Of a stretch of 61,003 bases of DNA, positions 47 through 6,482 are shown piece after piece. The position numbers and the translations under genes were made by a program. The stretch's first letter is position 1. Each line of letters starts with the position of its first letter. The notes under the pieces are model-generated. The model ran no database searches and had not been told where the DNA came from. It saw nothing but the letters and a program-made list of their open reading frames with translations. The DNA is from Thermoprotei archaeon (GTDB taxonomy: Archaea > Thermoproteota > Thermoprotei > QMSL01), in assembly GCA_003650925.1 (NCBI GenBank), contig QMSP01000008.1, positions 1 through 61,003 on the forward strand. The letters are read 5' to 3'.

Positions 47-170
47 ACTGTGCCTCTTGGGTGGGTGAGGGGAGCTCTGCTCCCGTAGCTTGCCCAAGAG
101 AGACCGTGATGAACCTAACCGTGGCTGAATAGTTTGACACATGATGCTACGGATTGGATGAACGGTCTCT
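47..170 (+). ncRNA. Candidate structured small RNA (hairpin plus C/D-box-like unit)
   Basis: No open reading frame explains this stretch. A TATA-like box (cttataag, 18-25) would place a transcription start near 47. Bases 54-61 (CTCTTGGG) pair perfectly with 93-100, and 70-75 (GGGAGC) pair with 79-84. These two stems enclose an 8 x 8 internal loop that resembles the pocket of an H/ACA guide RNA. Next comes a C box GTGATGA (106-112), exactly 12 bases, then CTGA (125-128), a C'-like ATGATG (141-146) and a D-like ATGA (158-161). All of this is bracketed by a perfect 7-bp terminal stem, AGAGACC (99-105) with GGTCTCT (164-170). The second box pair is degenerate and no ACA box is clear, so the class is uncertain. 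The two stems share bases 99-100, so they may be alternative folds or parts of one precursor. Confidence 0.5.
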
Positions 171-265: not shown

Positions 266-341
266 GCGGCCGTAGTCTAGCCTGGTAGGACGCGGGCCTG
301 CCACGCCCGTGACCCGGGTTCGAATCCCGGCGGCCGCACCA
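266..341 (+). tRNA. tRNA-Gly (GCC), CCA encoded
   Basis: A cloverleaf is visible. The acceptor GCGGCCG pairs with CGGCCGC, the anticodon stem CGGGC/GCCCG encloses a loop with GCC at 300-302, and the T arm carries GGTTCGAATCC. The discriminator A is at 338 and CCA is encoded at 339-341. There is no intron. A TATA-like box (ctttaaat) near 213-220 suits a start near 243. The 3' part of the gene from 297 onward is repeated, with five mismatches, at 5476-5520, so this tRNA was probably used as an integration site. Confidence 0.97.
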
Positions 342-393
342 CACCTTGAATCTCACCTTAACATAGCCCAATTCTAGATGGGGATATAACTAC

Positions 394-546
394 ATGAATG
401 ACTCTAAAGTAGAGAAGAAACTCAAAGAAATAGGTCCTGAATTTCTAGAATGCCCACATCGTAGTGAGCCTTCTGCAGGTTATGTAGTGCCCAAGGAGGG
501 TAAACTAGCTGAGAGGATAGAGAGGCTCTTAAGAGAGGAAGGATAG
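394..546 (+). CDS. Small hypothetical protein, 50 aa
   Basis: ATG at 394, preceded by a purine-rich patch (atgggg), opens a 50-residue charged frame ending in TAG at 546. The product is rich in Lys and Glu, with a short Pro/Cys/His segment in the middle (ECPHRSEPSAG) and a predicted helix at the C-terminus (LAERIERLLREE). It resembles no family I recognise. It is the first frame inside the putative tRNA-Gly element and could be a cargo gene or a remnant of a longer one. Confidence 0.4.
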   Translation: MNDSKVEKKLKEIGPEFLECPHRSEPSAGYVVPKEGKLAERIERLLREEG

Positions 547-640
547 GGACATAAATCTTGCATTACCGGATAAAATTAATCATGCAGATCAAGCTCTTTA
601 GATTTAATGCTTATATGTTGAAGAGAGCGATCCATGACTG

Positions 641-1027
641 ATGGTCGAGTCTAAGGCAGGTATGGGGATTGGCGAGGAGATTATAGAATCCATAAGAGAT
701 GCTAAGGAGAGAGTATGGGTCTGCACACCTTTCATTTCAATCAAATATGCTAAATTACTAGCTGAGAAGGCTTCTGAAGGTCTTGATGTAAGAATCATAA
801 CATCACCTAGTAGTTCATCGATAAGAGCATTAGATGCTATTAGAGATAGTGACGTGAGGATCAAAATAGTAGAGGAAGCCTTCATCCATGCTAAGCTATA
901 TATAATCGACGATGTCACCTTTACAGGCTCCGTAAATTTAACAGAGAGCAGTATTGAGAAGAACTATGAAGTTCTAACAGTGTTTAGAGGAGAAGAAGGT
1001 AGAGAGCTAAGAGAGCAATTTCTCTAA
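641..1027 (+). CDS. Single-domain phospholipase D-like protein
   Basis: A 128-residue protein with one PLD-superfamily catalytic unit. The HKD motif is visible near residues 88-95 (HAKLYIID), followed by the GSVNLT segment near 105-110 that normally completes the half-site. Upstream are the strand VWVCTPFIS and a helix, as in Nuc-type endonucleases and PLD-like proteins from mobile elements. A single HKD implies a homodimeric active site. The family cleaves phosphodiester bonds in DNA or lipid, and in this setting a nuclease is more likely, by inference. Bipartite PLDs are about twice this length. It lies 42 bases before the next gene on the same strand, inside the putative tRNA-Gly element. 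Confidence 0.8.
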   Translation: MVESKAGMGIGEEIIESIRDAKERVWVCTPFISIKYAKLLAEKASEGLDVRIITSPSSSSIRALDAIRDSDVRIKIVEEAFIHAKLYIIDDVTFTGSVNLTESSIEKNYEVLTVFRGEEGRELREQFL

Positions 1028-1069
1028 CTATGGAAGTCAGCTCCCTCTTTAACAGCTCCTGAAGGTTTT

Positions 1070-1741
1070 ATGATAAGGAGAATAGTTGATAAGCGCGGTG
1101 GAGTAAAGTTAGAGATAGTCCTCGAGGATGGAAGGAGAGTAGTATCAGACTTATACTATGACACTACATACTTAATAAAGCCTGATGGAGAGAGGAAAAT
1201 ATTGGTTAGAGCATCGATAAGAAGAATCGATGAAAGTGGTGCAGGCTGGAAACCGATAAATGAAGAACTGGCAGTCTCTCTTGAAGCAGCTTTCAGTAAG
1301 TTCAAGAAAGTCCCTCTTGGGCGACCACCTCCTGAGGAATTAAAGCAATTAATGGAAGTGGAAAGCATCTGTAGGTGGCTTCTTCTAAAGCTTGATGAGC
1401 ATGTTAACTTTGAAAAATGGGTTGAAAATTTAATCTCTAAGGGCATAGAGAGGCATGGATATGGAGGTATAGGTGTTGAAATTGATGTCAAAAATGGCGT
1501 ACTTCATATTGGTGAATACTTCGCTGTTAGTGAACATCAATATCTTGAATCCAAGAGCCTAGGAAGTGAGGAAGTTCTAAAGATGATTAGAGAATCCATA
1601 GAGAAACATTTCAATAACTTAAGGAAGTACCTAGAAGAGTCTCCTTGGAGAGAGGTCATCACCAAGGTTATCTACCACTTCAGATATAAGGGCAGGGATA
1701 TGGAGGAGACTCGAAAGGAGGAAGTAATCTTTGAAATATAA
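1070..1741 (+). CDS. Hypothetical protein, 223 aa
   Basis: ATG at 1070 follows the PLD-like gene by 42 bases on the same strand, so the two may be cotranscribed. The protein is soluble and charged. An N-terminal stretch (about 1-60) looks like alternating beta strands (VKLEIVLEDGRRVVSD), and the rest is mainly helical, with a Trp-containing segment near 105-125. There are no transmembrane segments and no metal or nucleotide-binding motif I recognise. The pairing with a PLD-type enzyme and the location inside the tRNA-Gly element suggest accessory function (defence or element maintenance), but that is guesswork. Confidence 0.6.
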   Translation: MIRRIVDKRGGVKLEIVLEDGRRVVSDLYYDTTYLIKPDGERKILVRASIRRIDESGAGWKPINEELAVSLEAAFSKFKKVPLGRPPPEELKQLMEVESICRWLLLKLDEHVNFEKWVENLISKGIERHGYGGIGVEIDVKNGVLHIGEYFAVSEHQYLESKSLGSEEVLKMIRESIEKHFNNLRKYLEESPWREVITKVIYHFRYKGRDMEETRKEEVIFEI

Positions 1742-2141
1742 TTTCCAAAGGCCTCTTTTATTTTTGGATACCTAAATTTAGTGATCCTGGGAACAGAAAA
1801 TTTGTGATAGGTGGAACTTTACCTAAATTCACTCCATTAAGTTAAGAGAGGCCCAAGAAAAAAGCTCCGCTCTATATGAGATGAATTTAGGCAAGGACTG
1901 GCAGAGTACCATAAGGTCGATGTGATAAATGCATGTGAGGAGGGCAGAACTAATTTGCCACAATAGAAGTGGATACTGAGTCGGATTTCCATCAAATGTA
2001 ACAGGTGAGGCAGGTTAGTCTAGTGAAGAGACATGTCTAAGTGGTTTATCATTGCCATGGATGTCATACATGTGACAGTTGTAATTAGGGCAATTTTTCA
2101 ACAATAAGGTTTTGTAGAGTTCCTTAATTTTAAACTAATCG
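1742..2141. other. 400-base gap without an intact gene
   Basis: No frame longer than about 50 codons with a plausible start is present. A short frame around 1890-1965 reads like gene debris (GLAEYHKVDVINACEEGRTN) but has no start codon, and stops surround it. Base composition is AT-rich. No tRNA, convincing hairpin or repeat was seen. This fits decay within an old integrated element. Confidence 0.5.
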
Positions 2142-2807
2142 ATGTGTAATGACCTGAGTAGGGTTACTATTGGCTTCAAGAGGAAGCTAGAGAATCCCAA
2201 GATTCGATTGAGGTCAAAGCTTAGTAAGAGAAAGGAGAGGCTCTATACGGAGTTAGGAAGGGCTATGTTGAGAGGTGGTCTTCAAGCAGCTTTTAAGCTT
2301 TGTGACCAAGATGCGAGATTTAGAGAAATAAAAACTAGCGGCTATGGAGAAATAGCGAATATAGCCGTGGCTGTGGCTATGATAAAGAGAGGGTATGAAG
2401 TAGTATTAGAGCCTATGATTCAAATCAAAGAGAAGAGAGAGTTTAGGATGAGTATAGACCCTGGACCTTATGATGTTGCCTATCCTATAAATGAGGAGAT
2501 CGTAGCACTTCTTGAAGTTAGGTTGAGAAGACGCGGAGAAACAGCTCCTCCTTTTGGTCGTGTAGATAAGGTGTACGAAGAGAGACCATTAAAGCCAGTT
2601 ATGAAAACATTAGTAGGGGATTATGGGATATTACCATTTGGAATCCTCATAAACATAACCCCTATCAAGATAAAGACTCCTCCCTATGTCGTGAATATTC
2701 GGGGAATTAGCATGGGCAGAGAGGGTATTGATGAGATTTCGGAGAAAATTATTGAATTTGTGGAGAGCTGTAAAGAGAGGCATATCATACCTTCTTCAAT
2801 TCCCTAA
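2142..2807 (+). CDS. Hypothetical protein, 221 aa, possible nuclease fold
   Basis: The N-terminal 50 residues are strongly basic (many Lys/Arg). A compact alpha/beta region follows: YGEIANIAVAVAMIKRGYEV, then PGPYDVAY ... IVALLEVRLRR near residues 108-130. The spaced Asp and Glu before a hydrophobic strand ending in Arg vaguely recall PD-(D/E)XK nucleases, but the match is too weak for a function call. The 3' end overlaps the convergent Panacea-like gene by 23 bases. A basic putative nucleic-acid-binding protein beside an antitoxin-type protein in an integrated element could be a toxin-antitoxin or defence pair. That is inference only. Confidence 0.55.
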   Translation: MCNDLSRVTIGFKRKLENPKIRLRSKLSKRKERLYTELGRAMLRGGLQAAFKLCDQDARFREIKTSGYGEIANIAVAVAMIKRGYEVVLEPMIQIKEKREFRMSIDPGPYDVAYPINEEIVALLEVRLRRRGETAPPFGRVDKVYEERPLKPVMKTLVGDYGILPFGILINITPIKIKTPPYVVNIRGISMGREGIDEISEKIIEFVESCKERHIIPSSIP

Positions 2808-3288
2808 ACCTAAGGTCTCCTAACTCCTTCTTAATGTATAAATCTATGTGTACACCCATGTACTCCTCCTTCCTAGATTCTTCAAGTCCAAGTCTCTCAC
2901 ATACTAGCTTCTCAAGCTCCCATCCTCTCTTCTTACCATGCTTACTCAATACTTTATCAATACGCTTTCCTACCTCTTCTGGAAGCTCAGAGTACTTGTA
3001 GTCCTCTGGAAGCATGATAATGTATGGAGGCTCACTTTCATCTATTATAAATTCTTCCTCAATTACATCATAGACTTCATTCATGAATGGACCATAGCTC
3101 CATATGTAGAATTCTCCTCTGCAAATGGGCTTATCATCATAAAGATACTTCACTACATTACTACTGAATCTTCCGGGTAGGTCATACTGAATCAAGAAGA
3201 GAAGCTTCATAAGCTTCTTCAAACCCTCAACCTGTCCACCAAGTTTCTCAACTACGTAGAAGATTACATCCCTAAGCTCATATGGCAT
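2785..3288 (-). CDS. Panacea (SocA-like/DUF4065-type) domain protein
   Basis: The product from ATG 3288 is 167 residues. A longer frame begins at 3327, but 3288 has an SD (gggag) just upstream and starts at the conserved fold. The helix LKKLMKLLFLIQYDL near residue 20, followed by GEFYIWSYGPFMNEVYDVIEE near 50-70, matches the pattern of Panacea domains (helix with KLL, then a YGP-containing strand-turn and a helix). These are known as antitoxins or chaperone-like neutralisers of many toxins, and as the GepA/SocA family. If it is an antitoxin, the toxin should be adjacent. The overlapping convergent gene 2142-2807 is the obvious candidate, although toxin and antitoxin are usually co-oriented. 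Confidence 0.6.
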   Translation of the reverse strand: MPYELRDVIFYVVEKLGGQVEGLKKLMKLLFLIQYDLPGRFSSNVVKYLYDDKPICRGEFYIWSYGPFMNEVYDVIEEEFIIDESEPPYIIMLPEDYKYSELPEEVGKRIDKVLSKHGKKRGWELEKLVCERLGLEESRKEEYMGVHIDLYIKKELGDLRFRELKKV

Positions 3289-3403
3289 ACTCCCAGACCC
3301 CCTACAACCTTCCCTCCTTAACTCCACAAGTATTAAAGTAGCATCGACGTATAGATGTATCGCTGGGGAGTAACATTAAAACTTTTCCATATATAATTCT
3401 TTC

Positions 3404-3620
3404 TCACTCATTATATTGCACTTTGCCAGCCATGATTCTACATAGTTCTTTATCCTTTCTTGCCAAGGTTTCCATTCTATAAGGCATTAACCCCTTATCT
3501 CTAACACCTTTTAGAACATTCTTGACCCATGACGCATAGACTTTATCATCTCCCTTAAAATTAGCAACTTTTCACTCCTTTCAACAAAGTTCATGATAAC
3601 CTTCATAGCCTCATCTATGT
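3404..3620 (-). pseudogene. Frameshifted remnant of an unidentified gene
   Basis: On the minus strand one frame reads DEAMKVIMNFVERSEKLLIL and then hits a stop. A second frame continues at once with DDKVYASWVKNVLKGVRDKG and on to a stop at 3404-3406. The two join naturally if one base is shifted near 3550, giving a helical charged protein of about 70 residues with no start. This is best read as a decayed gene within the tRNA-Gly element. No family assigned. Confidence 0.5.
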
Positions 3621-3997
3621 CTCAAGCTTGCAAAGGACTATGTTAAGGAATATGAGGTTATTAGAGAAGAGCACGAGCTAACATGGCCCAATACTATGAA
3701 GCTTGGCCTCATATACCGCATATTACCACATTGCGGGGCCATATTGAGAGGAGAGTTAGATGAAAGAAAGCGAATAGAAATGCCCACTGAGGTTATCAAG
3801 CTTAAGGGTGATCTAGTATATCAGGCTGATGTAGAAGAGGGCCCTATTCTTAAGATCAAAGTCAATAAAGTTCTCGAAAATGGTAATTTGATATCATGCT
3901 AGAAAACTCCTACCTCTACAATAGAGCTTACCCGGGCTATGTTGAAATCATAACGTATCCCCTTGATAGGCTAAAGGAGTCATTAATAGGAACATGA
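3609..3997 (+). pseudogene. Broken gene remnant, two overlapping frames
   Basis: A frame open from 3609 to the TAG at 3900-3902 (first ATG 3696) encodes a peptide with a plausible beta-rich core (VIKLKGDLVYQADVEEG). A second frame starting at ATG 3896 continues for 33 codons to TGA 3995-3997 (YLYNRAYPGYVEIITYP). The shift from one to the other suggests a single original protein of about 130 residues split by a frameshift near 3895. No start codon is convincing for the upstream part. Family unknown. Confidence 0.45.
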
Positions 3998-4009
3998 GAA
4001 TAAACTATC

Positions 4010-5278
4010 CTACCTAATTTTTGTAATGAGGCGTGTAGTCACTAGTCCGGCTACAAATGCTGCTAGCCCCACTATTAATGTAAGCATACGCCACTGTGTC
4101 AGCTCGTTCTCAGCAACTACAAGCTTGTCTTTAGTCTCCTTTAATGTCTCTTCAGCTTGTGAGAGAGCCTGCTCTAGAGATGCAACTTGGCTTTTAAGTG
4201 AAGATACTTCTCCTCTTAACTGGCCTATGATGCCTTCGAGATCAGAGACCTTGTCCTTAAGCATTCTGTTTTCATCCTTTAGAGTGTTATACTTTTCTCT
4301 TAATGAGTTATATTTCTGCAGGAGATTTTCATAAAGTTCCTTGTAGTTCTTTGTCTCCTCTGATACGAAGCCCTTAACAGCATCTGTTTTGTCTGTAGGT
4401 GGTTGGCCTAATGTCATCAGATATTCTGGCTTTATATCAACGTATAGATGGTAGGTACCTATCCTATGCCATTCCCCTACTGGCAGAGCTTCGAGTTGAG
4501 TCTTAGCAACGTCTACTGGTATGAGGGAGGCGTACATACCGATGTCTCCTTCCTCAAGATTAAGAGGCGGTATGGATATGGGCCACATTAACGTGAATAA
4601 GTCTGTAAGTGGTGTTCCCAAGACATCAACATCGACATCAAGGAAGACATACAATGATACCGTTGGAGGGATAATCGAGACCATTACCTTTATACCTGCC
4701 TCTGGGCTAATCGTGAGGAAGCCTGATAGCGTCTCCACCTTCTTTAGTATGAATAACTCTATGGGGTTGGGAATTCTCTGTTGAGGTAGACTTAATGTTA
4801 AGTACTTTGGTACTATGATTTTCAGGTCGAATTCATCTGTTCTATAAATGTACTCTACAGTTTCAACATATTCTACGGCCTCTTCTCGCTTTACTACAAC
4901 CTCTATCACCTTAGAGGCTGAGGCATTATGAGTTATTAGCTCAGCAATTATCTCATACTTTCCAGCCTCGCTAGGAGTCCAGTAGATAGTTTTACCACGG
5001 AAGCCTGCTTCACCAGCAGGTGCTTTCCAATACCATCGTTTGACTATGATATTGCCATTAAGCTTTGTTACTATAACTCCCCACTCATGCTCAAGACAGA
5101 AACACGTTATATGAGGGTCCATGAAGATTTTTATTTCAACAGTCTCACCAACAGTATACACATCTTTATCTGTACTCACTATGATTTCTGAAGATTCACT
5201 AGCAAATGCTAATGTTAAAGTATTCAGGCTTAGCATAAGAGACATGATGATTACTAGGACCCAATAAGCTCTCCTCAC
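4010..5278 (-). CDS. Membrane-anchored extracellular protein with coiled coil
   Basis: A 422-residue protein with an N-terminal signal segment (about 5-27). It is followed by an Ig-like or CARDB-like beta domain (about 30-130; the VYTVGETVEIKIFMDP pattern is typical of archaeal surface adhesin repeats), a middle domain, a long heptad coiled coil (about 312-395, Leu/Glu/Lys-rich) and one C-terminal transmembrane helix (about 397-417) ending in Arg/Lys. The likely topology is extracellular with a stalk anchored at the membrane. Similar architectures occur at 7533-9245 and 31600-34044. It is the last gene of the putative tRNA-Gly element. Exact function unknown. Confidence 0.75.
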   Translation of the reverse strand: MRRAYWVLVIIMSLMLSLNTLTLAFASESSEIIVSTDKDVYTVGETVEIKIFMDPHITCFCLEHEWGVIVTKLNGNIIVKRWYWKAPAGEAGFRGKTIYWTPSEAGKYEIIAELITHNASASKVIEVVVKREEAVEYVETVEYIYRTDEFDLKIIVPKYLTLSLPQQRIPNPIELFILKKVETLSGFLTISPEAGIKVMVSIIPPTVSLYVFLDVDVDVLGTPLTDLFTLMWPISIPPLNLEEGDIGMYASLIPVDVAKTQLEALPVGEWHRIGTYHLYVDIKPEYLMTLGQPPTDKTDAVKGFVSEETKNYKELYENLLQKYNSLREKYNTLKDENRMLKDKVSDLEGIIGQLRGEVSSLKSQVASLEQALSQAEETLKETKDKLVVAENELTQWRMLTLIVGLAAFVAGLVTTRLITKIR

Positions 5279-5475
5279 CTTATATTCACCTCACTAATAG
5301 CTTGTAGTTGTATCCACTAATAGTATTTGCAGTGCCTATTGGTCAGTAGTCTAGGGCTGATTATTGATATTCACGGTCATGTAAGAATATCAAATCTTAG
5401 ATATTTTCCTATAGGCATTCTAATACAGACTTCTCTATGTGATAAATCTAAGCATAAGATGTCATATATTTATGA

Positions 5476-5520
5476 CCTGCCACGCCTGTGACTCAGGTTC
5501 GAATCCCAGCGGCCGCATCA
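5476..5520 (+). repeat. Partial tRNA-Gly copy (putative attachment site)
   Basis: These 45 bases match tRNA-Gly 297-341 from the anticodon loop to the CCA with five substitutions (308, 314, 316, 329, 339 in tRNA numbering). The terminal CCA has become TCA. The 5' half of the tRNA is absent, so it cannot be a functional gene. It marks the right border of the putative integrated element. The rest of the 5279-5618 gap shows nothing else recognisable. Confidence 0.75.
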
Positions 5521-5618
5521 CAAACATTTGATCACAACATGAAGGCTATGGATTATTGTGTCCTTCATCGATAGCCACAGGACTTGATAACAATATGGGT
5601 TAAGAGGAGATTTCTTGG

Positions 5619-6482
5619 CTATCTCCTTCCCATAACAAGAAATTCACAATATTTATCGCCCTTTGCTATACACCTTGTCTCTATGGCCTTTACACGTCTT
5701 CTCAGTAGTTCACTAAACCATCCAGCTATCATGCCTCTTATGAGGTGACTGGATGGCTTTCCACTGTTCTTGAATATTTCACACTCAAAGCAGTGATGTA
5801 CCCTTATGCGTGCTCTTCCAATAGAGAGGTCAAGCTCTAATATCTTCATGATGCCGTAGCCCACTATTCTGAATATGGCCTCAGAGATTGCTATTGTGTT
5901 CTTAAGGTCGCGACCAGCTATTTCATAGTGATATCTAAAGGCTTTCCTGCCCATTTCAAGCCCTGTGTAGTACATAAGTGATGCATATCCGCTTCCTAGG
6001 ATGCTTCTAAGCTCCTTGAGGAAGGCTTCATAAAGAGTTCTTCTCAGAATTATTACTCTCTCGCCAAGTAGAGTCAGAGGAAAGAGATTTGTCTCCAAGG
6101 CAAAGCCATTGAAGAGAGGAGCACTGATGATGACTTGCTTAACATACTCCATGGCTTTCAGTTCTCGAACTATGTCACTGAGAGCTTCAAGCCTTTTGGT
6201 CATGTCAGCAAAGAGCACTAGGACTGGAGGTTGGTCTTTATACTGGCGAGAGGCCTTGATGTGAACTAGGGATATTCCTCTTCTTTTAAATGACTCTAAC
6301 ATTCTGCTTAGCAGGCCTGGTGTCTCAATAACTTTGCTCTCCATGATTATAGTGAAACAGTAGACGATCTTACCAGGGACGTAAGCAAAGCGCCCTATTT
6401 CATATGGTTGGAGCGTCTCTTCAGCGATTCCTGTACTTGTCCCTAGTAGCCCTCTTCTCATGTATACATCTCTATCCATCAT
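5619..6482 (-). CDS. ACT-V4R sensor-like protein
   Basis: From ATG 6482 the protein has 287 residues. A longer frame to 6731 adds 83 residues that run through the promoter and a homopolymer tract and is rejected. About residues 35-115 resemble an ACT-type ligand domain (PGLLSRMLESFKRRGISL). The C-terminal 140 residues are a V4R domain, ending in the family hallmark HLIRGMIAGWFSEL ... ETRCIAKGDKYCEF. V4R domains bind small hydrocarbons or other ligands and are often linked to regulation or bacteriochlorophyll-type enzymes. ACT plus V4R proteins are found in archaea without known function. A TATA box lies 26 bases before the start, so the mRNA is probably leaderless. Confidence 0.8.
   Translation of the reverse strand: MMDRDVYMRRGLLGTSTGIAEETLQPYEIGRFAYVPGKIVYCFTIIMESKVIETPGLLSRMLESFKRRGISLVHIKASRQYKDQPPVLVLFADMTKRLEALSDIVRELKAMEYVKQVIISAPLFNGFALETNLFPLTLLGERVIILRRTLYEAFLKELRSILGSGYASLMYYTGLEMGRKAFRYHYEIAGRDLKNTIAISEAIFRIVGYGIMKILELDLSIGRARIRVHHCFECEIFKNSGKPSSHLIRGMIAGWFSELLRRRVKAIETRCIAKGDKYCEFLVMGRR

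What the first reader, a model, noticed from the sequence alone, without database searches (positions are those of the whole stretch)
297..5520. Old integrated element bounded by tRNA-Gly and a 45-base partial copy
The copy at 5476-5520 matches the anticodon-loop-to-CCA part of the tRNA at 40/45 positions, as left by tRNA-site integration. The interior holds a PLD-like protein, a Panacea-like protein overlapping a basic orphan, a coiled-coil surface protein and two frameshifted remnants. No integrase remains. The cargo may be an unrecognised defence or toxin module.
Basis: partly seen in the sequence, partly recalled or inferred. Interest (0 to 1): 0.7.

Follow-up and report, generated by a model that had tools for sequence, protein, structure and literature searches.

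The report
Archaeal integration scar carrying toxin-antitoxin-like pair
A 5-kilobase stretch next to a glycine tRNA gene in a heat-loving archaeon is the worn-down remains of a DNA element that once inserted there, and it still carries an intact gene pair, a Panacea antitoxin-like protein beside a predicted nuclease, that recurs as a unit in related archaea and looks like a previously unrecognised toxin-antitoxin (or defence) module.

Summary
tRNA-Gly(GCC) lies at 266-341, and its 3' 45-47 bases recur at 5476-5522 (40/45; 42/47). The copy fits only the GCC isoacceptor (5 mismatches, all C-to-T or G-to-A; 15-17 to the other Gly tRNAs), starts at the anticodon stem/loop edge and is not a dispersed repeat. 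The interior is AT-richer (39.8% vs 44.5% GC). It holds half of a PriX primase domain in a broken frame; no other PriX exists in this genome or 60 relatives. This is the scar of an integrated element whose integrase is gone. No genome close enough exists to show an empty site.

The new part is the cargo. The Panacea protein and the overlapping 'orphan' are a real pair: in at least seven further genomes (Pyrobaculum, Thermoproteus, Vulcanisaeta and others) an orphan homologue is the next gene after Panacea, same strand, often overlapping. The partner is a PD-(D/E)XK-type nuclease by motif and fold (AlphaFold pLDDT 90 for a relative). In one relative it sits beside archaeal integrases directly downstream of two tRNA genes. 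Most likely it is a Panacea-neutralised nuclease toxin carried by tRNA-integrating elements. The window's copy may be disarmed (ExR replaces ExK; genes convergent). Toxicity is untested.

The parts
266..341 (+). tRNA-Gly(GCC), intact; its 3' part (297-343) is the restored left attachment site
   Evidence: ARAGORN; Rfam tRNA 69 bits; direct repeat
5476..5522 (+). Decayed copy of the tRNA-Gly(GCC) 3' part = right attachment-site remnant; 42/47 identical, the 5 mismatches all C-to-T or G-to-A
394..546 (+). Small ORF, 50 aa, no family match; gene status uncertain
641..1027 (+). Single-domain PLD-like protein (128 aa) with one HxKxxxxD motif; predicted nuclease or phosphodiesterase of the PLDc_2 family
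   Evidence: PF13091 E=6.4e-19; PADLOC DpdK/DrmC-type PLD profiles E=1.7e-9 to 4e-8, generic
1070..1741 (+). Orphan protein, 223 aa, 42 bases after the PLD gene; no credible homologue in 398 genomes of the phylum or in viral/phage collections
2142..2807 (+). PD-(D/E)XK-type nuclease, predicted toxin or effector (221 aa); E90, D111, E125 conserved, catalytic Lys position is Arg127 only in this copy
   Evidence: fold of the G021 relative
2785..3288 (-). Panacea (SocA/DUF4065) protein, predicted antitoxin; likely ATG at 3288, ORF open to 3327 (GTG); 3' end overlaps the nuclease gene by 23 bases
   Evidence: PF13274 E=7.1e-9, 37 bits vs cut-off 25.7
3379..3621 (-). Frameshifted remnant of a PriX-type primase subunit/domain; the match (model 47-91 of 95) lies at 3431-3565
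   Evidence: PF18689 E=1.5e-10, PriX crystal structures by phmmer E=1.4e-7; only PriX match in 61 genomes
3609..3994 (+). Second broken ORF in two frames, identity unknown
4010..5278 (-). 422-aa predicted secreted/anchored protein: signal-like start, Ig-like N-terminal domain with CxCLEHEW motif, coiled coil about 295-410, C-terminal hydrophobic segment

Best explanation
The region 344-5475 is what is left of a mobile element that integrated by a tyrosine recombinase crossing over near the anticodon loop of tRNA-Gly(GCC), keeping the tRNA gene whole and leaving a displaced 3' copy at 5476-5522 (shown: repeat and anatomy; inferred: history). The integrase was lost and the PriX-type replication gene decayed (shown: half a PriX domain in broken frames). 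Two cargo genes stayed open: a Panacea protein and a PD-(D/E)XK-type nuclease. They form a two-gene module that recurs in Thermoproteales relatives as an antitoxin-first, usually overlapping gene pair (shown). Most likely the nuclease is a toxin or effector that cleaves nucleic acid, and Panacea holds it inactive by direct binding, as in characterised PanA-PanT pairs (inferred). Loss of Panacea, by loss of the element or by viral attack, would free the nuclease, which would explain carriage on integrating elements and survival after the element decays (inferred). In the window the partner gene has turned round to be convergent and encodes ExR instead of ExK, so this copy may be weakened or disarmed.
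For: Scar; SSV1-type crossover at the anticodon loop and archaeal preference for tRNA 3' ends in PMC8371274. Composition 39.8% vs 44.5% GC. Foreign PriX remnant. Pair: orphan-family matches in 8 genomes besides this one, all of which also hold this Panacea family. The two genes are adjacent, Panacea first, in G078, G023 (two loci), G071, G004, G039, G021 and G047, with broken versions in G049 and G070. Partner start overlaps the Panacea stop, or can, in 5 of the 7 loci of this class measured. Invariant E..D..E with K two residues later in the eight non-window members. AlphaFold model of the G021 partner pLDDT 89.8, pTM 0.89; the fold lists are dominated by PD-(D/E)XK nucleases: Can2/Card1 Z 7.4-7.5, McrC 7.4, AgeI 6.5, Hjc 5.8. 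More distant Panacea genes in G119, G218, G368 and G213 are followed by a second protein type with the pattern EP..DYAI, plus EVK where the gene is complete enough to show it. Mobility: in G072 partner genes lie right after PF16795/PF00589-type integrases directly downstream of tRNA-Leu and tRNA-Glu. Panacea antitoxins bind and neutralise diverse toxins: PMC8832971, PMC10440598.
Against: No toxicity or neutralisation is shown for any member. The window's own partner is divergent (19-25% identity to the others in the nine-row alignment), lacks the catalytic Lys, gave a weak model (pLDDT 68) with no informative fold match, and is not co-directional with Panacea. No empty site could be compared. 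PriX matched here only Sulfolobus-type cellular PriX, so the remnant does not prove a plasmid. Fold scores are moderate (Z below 8), and sequence profiles gave no significant nuclease family (best Hjc and AHJR-like at E about 0.1).
Confidence: 0.62

Rival explanations
1. The pair is a defence nuclease with a Panacea regulator rather than an addiction module: the nuclease attacks invading DNA and Panacea keeps it off, or senses the invader.
For: The nearest folds are DNA-cutting defence effectors (Can2/Card1, McrC, DdmD); one locus (Vulcanisaeta sp. JCM 14467) lies about 3 kb from a CRISPR array; literature links Panacea networks to phage defence.
Against: No sensor domain, helicase or methylase is conserved with the pair; a nearby CRISPR array in one genome is weak evidence.
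Confidence: 0.25
2. The window copy is a disarmed relic: Panacea kept as an anti-toxin against incoming elements of the same kind, or both genes simply not yet decayed. (Compatible with the family being a toxin-antitoxin system elsewhere.)
For: ExR replaces ExK only here, genes convergent, neighbouring genes broken.
Against: Both ORFs are full length and Panacea is well conserved (39-48% identity to relatives); Arg at this position does not by itself prove inactivity.
Confidence: 0.4
3. No mobile element: the tRNA fragment arose by a local partial tRNA duplication, and the genes between are ordinary variable genes.
For: No integrase, no empty site, and a second tRNA 3' fragment exists elsewhere in the genome (C13:~816).
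Against: Breakpoint at the anticodon loop, AT-rich interior, foreign PriX remnant, and the same partner family beside tRNA-linked integrases in G072.
Confidence: 0.1

Closest known systems
Panacea (PanA/PanT; DUF4065/SocA-like) toxin-antitoxin systems (PMC8832971, PMC10440598)
   Same: Panacea domain above Pfam cut-off; conserved adjacent partner gene; overlapping genes; association with mobile DNA; known in archaea
   Different: Partner is a PD-(D/E)XK-fold protein; the passages I read of those papers name MqsR, Fic/Doc, toxSAS, PemK, ParE, PIN and YafQ among the toxins, not this fold (their supplements were not readable). Antitoxin-first order, whereas 78% of Panacea pairs are reported toxin-first. 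Window copy convergent.
Archaeal elements integrated in tRNA genes by tyrosine recombinases (SSV and pNOB8/pT26-2 types; PMC8371274)
   Same: 3' part of a tRNA gene duplicated, breakpoint at the anticodon loop, intact tRNA restored on one side
   Different: Integrase lost, element 5.1 kb and partly decayed
PD-(D/E)XK effectors Can2/Card1 and McrC, and resolvase Hjc
   Same: Fold and E..D..ExK motif of the partner family
   Different: No CARF sensor, AAA+ partner or DNA-junction context; only fold-level similarity
PriX primase subunit / PriCT domains of mobile-element primases (PMC5862659)
   Same: 45-residue match to PriX at 3431-3565
   Different: Only half the domain remains, broken; origin (plasmid, virus or captured host gene) undecided

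Membership tests
Panacea toxin-antitoxin system | Panacea (PF13274) domain over the curated cut-off | tested here: met
   37 bits vs 25.7 in the window; G021, G023b and G119 copies also above
Panacea toxin-antitoxin system | Conserved adjacent partner gene | tested here: met
   8 intact loci in 7 further genomes
Panacea toxin-antitoxin system | Co-directional, operon-like arrangement | tested here: inconclusive
   Met in the relatives, not in the window, where the genes are convergent
Panacea toxin-antitoxin system | Partner toxic and neutralised by Panacea through complex formation | not testable with these tools
   needs expression tests
PD-(D/E)XK nuclease superfamily | Core fold alpha-beta-beta-beta-alpha-beta | tested here: met
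   G021 model pLDDT 89.8; top structural matches are members of the superfamily, Z up to 7.5. For the window protein itself inconclusive
PD-(D/E)XK nuclease superfamily | Catalytic D and ExK | tested here: inconclusive
   D111 and E125 invariant in 9/9; Lys in 8/9, Arg127 in the window
PD-(D/E)XK nuclease superfamily | Nuclease activity | not testable with these tools
   needs biochemistry
tRNA-integrated archaeal element | Direct repeat of the tRNA 3' part bounding the element | tested here: met
tRNA-integrated archaeal element | Integrase gene in the element | tested here: not met
   No PF16795 in the genome and no PF00589 on this contig: filed as a remnant, not a working element
tRNA-integrated archaeal element | Empty site in a close relative | not testable with these tools
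   No other genome of the family is held

The most novel reading that the evidence does not exclude
Crenarchaeal Panacea proteins are paired with two diverged classes of PD-(D/E)XK nuclease as a widespread, tRNA-element-borne toxin-antitoxin or abortive-infection system, which would add this nuclease fold to the toxins Panacea controls and make these archaeal element remnants sites of surviving addiction modules.
Probability: 0.45. Interest if true: 0.6.

Novelty: new variant of a known kind. Interest (0 to 1): 0.5.

Why it matters
If the nuclease is a Panacea-neutralised toxin, Panacea's range extends to PD-(D/E)XK nucleases in hyperthermophilic archaea, where (from general knowledge) few toxin-antitoxin systems have been tested. 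It would also give a concrete case of an addiction-like pair outlasting the element that brought it, with intact relatives in named Pyrobaculum and Vulcanisaeta strains for direct tests.

Tried and rejected
Viral and phage collections gave no relative of the partner, the Panacea protein, the 223-aa orphan or the PLD protein. The genome-collection scan with the window orphan alone found nothing; the Panacea alignment then found seven named loci. The one hit of the 223-aa orphan, in G311 (E=2e-5), falls in a nucleoside diphosphate kinase-like frame and is taken as chance. The PriX hit in a viral contig (L154) is a phage head-morphogenesis-like protein sharing a short motif, taken as chance. Plasmid and phage records gave no match to the PriX piece. 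Neighbourhood of the V4R gene (5622-6482) and the coiled-coil gene: both families lie about 2 kb apart in two genomes of one genus, but the shared part is only the Ig-like N-terminal domain, there in other proteins (one fused to a flavodoxin-like domain), with a glutamine synthetase-like gene between, so this is not synteny across the scar. Fold search with the window orphan gave only weak unrelated matches. hhalign between the two partner classes aligned the EP..D..EVK motifs but with probability 3%, so common descent of the two classes is not shown. Alignment A5 was too diverse for collection scans.

Full report
Where the window lies. The window is one whole contig (C8) of a 2.14-Mb, 98.6% complete genome in 81 contigs. 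No other genome of its family is held; three come from the same order, and relatives in the same class include Pyrobaculum, Thermoproteus and Vulcanisaeta. It is therefore an archaeon of the Thermoproteota, presumably thermophilic, and no close sister genome exists for an empty-site test.

The scar. ARAGORN finds tRNA-Gly(GCC) at 266-341. The repeat finder gives 297-343 and 5476-5522 as a 47-base direct repeat, 42 identical. Over 45 bases the copy has 5 mismatches to tRNA-Gly(GCC) but 17 and 15 to the CCC and TCC isoacceptors, so it derives from this very gene; all five changes are C-to-T or G-to-A. The best match of this 45-mer in shuffled window sequence was 25/45 against 40/45 observed. In the whole genome it is the only partial copy at this similarity; the other hits that I followed are complete tRNA genes, some with introns, apart from one unrelated 3' fragment on C13. 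The copy begins one base before the anticodon loop. Archaeal tyrosine recombinases such as the SSV1 integrase cross over at the anticodon loop, and archaeal integrases prefer the 3' part of tRNA genes (PMC8371274).

What the interior looks like. GC content is 39.8% inside and 44.5% over the window. No SSV-type integrase family (PF16795) is detected in the genome, and none of the six tyrosine recombinase hits is on this contig. One broken reading frame on the minus strand (3431-3565) matches the C-terminal half of PriX, a noncatalytic primase subunit, above the Pfam cut-off (E=1.5e-10), and matches PriX crystal structures by sequence (E=1.4e-7). It is the only PriX match in this genome and there is none in 60 relatives, while the control Sulfolobus acidocaldarius scores. 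PriX-like PriCT domains are commonly fused to primases of mobile elements (PMC5862659), so a decayed foreign replication gene is the likeliest reading; a captured host-type PriX is not excluded.

The pair. The window Panacea protein passes the curated Pfam cut-off. The orphan that overlaps it by 23 bases in convergent orientation at first had one weak relative, in G078, which lay next to a Panacea gene. Alignments of both families searched over 398 genomes of the phylum gave eight other genomes for the orphan and 21 for Panacea. In the close-relative loci examined the two are neighbours, Panacea first, same strand: G078, G023 (twice), G071, G004, G039, G021 and G047, with broken versions in G049 and G070. 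Partner start codons overlap the Panacea stop, or can, in five of the seven measured loci of this class. Named hosts include Pyrobaculum oguniense TE7, Pyrobaculum sp. WP30, Vulcanisaeta sp. JCM 14467, Vulcanisaeta distributa JCM 11216 and Thermoproteus sp. CP80.

The partner is a predicted nuclease. Across nine members Tyr35, Glu90, Asp111, Ala113 and Glu125 (window numbering) are invariant, with D-x-A followed by E-[VI]-K in eight members, the motif of PD-(D/E)XK nucleases. AlphaFold2 on an 11-sequence alignment led by the G021 member gave pLDDT 89.8 and pTM 0.89. Foldseek's best match is a CRISPR-associated DNA nuclease (E=8e-4), and the VIA-align list is dominated by this superfamily: Can2 Z 7.5, Card1 7.4, McrC 7.4, AgeI 6.5, Hjc 5.8. 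These Z values are moderate; the fold assignment rests on the consistency of the list plus the motif. The window member itself gave a poor model (pLDDT 68) without informative matches, and has Arg127 where the others have Lys.

A second partner class. Remoter Panacea genes in G119, G218, G368 and G213 are followed by other proteins that share the pattern EP...DYAI, with EVK in the three whose gene reaches that far. Profile comparison does not establish homology of the two classes, so they are either very divergent or convergent on one motif. Other archaeal Panacea genes have quite different neighbours, as expected for this promiscuous antitoxin domain.

Link to mobility. In G072, two partner genes lie directly behind tyrosine integrases of the archaeal phage type (PF16795, PF00589), each just downstream of a tRNA gene, tRNA-Leu(CAA) and tRNA-Glu(CTC); the two integrase-partner stretches are 84% identical to each other. 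The contigs end inside the pair, so those elements are incompletely seen, and no right-hand tRNA copy was found. This is the closest parallel to the window: the same gene family on elements that target tRNA genes.

How it most likely works. Characterised Panacea antitoxins form complexes with their toxins and neutralise them directly (PMC8832971, PMC10440598). By analogy Panacea holds the nuclease inactive and the nuclease damages nucleic acid when released. That reading is inferred. A defence nuclease with a Panacea brake is the main rival. For the window copy, retention of two open genes while neighbours decayed fits an addiction-type pair, but the Arg substitution and the turned-round gene leave open that it is disarmed. 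The PLD-like gene and the 223-aa orphan behind it, and the 422-aa coiled-coil surface protein, could not be linked to the pair or to a known system.

Novelty. The scar is an ordinary remnant of a known kind. The Panacea plus PD-(D/E)XK pairing is, as far as the passages I could read go, not described; supplements of the two Panacea papers could not be read, so these loci may already sit there as unnamed clusters. I rate it a new variant of a known kind.

Noticed in passing
G000:C13 about 816-848 (L144 517-549): A second truncated tRNA 3' end (T arm and acceptor end with CCA, not a close match to the tRNA-Gly copy) with no complete tRNA detected; possibly another integration scar or an unrecognised intron-bearing tRNA.
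   Followed up: partly
window 98-168: Inverted ends (AGAGACCGT/ACGGTCTCT) enclosing TGATGA, CTGA and ATGATG boxes: looks like a C/D box small RNA just upstream of tRNA-Gly; no Rfam match over it.
   Followed up: no
L138 9041-9891 (Vulcanisaeta sp. JCM 14467): CRISPR array with repeat GAAGATTTCAATAGAATATTGAAAC about 3 kb from the Panacea-nuclease pair.
   Followed up: no
G072 C17 and C13 (L128, L129): Two related elements (84% identical over 1.3 kb) in two different tRNA genes of one genome, each with an archaeal integrase followed by the nuclease gene; one integrase frame looks broken.
   Followed up: partly
L109, L113, L124: A longer Panacea protein (about 250 aa) paired with a conserved 280-300 aa protein rich in CxxC motifs: another possible archaeal Panacea partner family.
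   Followed up: no
window 4010-5278 and G000:C14:19844-20146: Ig-like domain with CxCLEHEW motif shared by several secreted or flavodoxin-fused proteins of other genomes of the class.
   Followed up: partly
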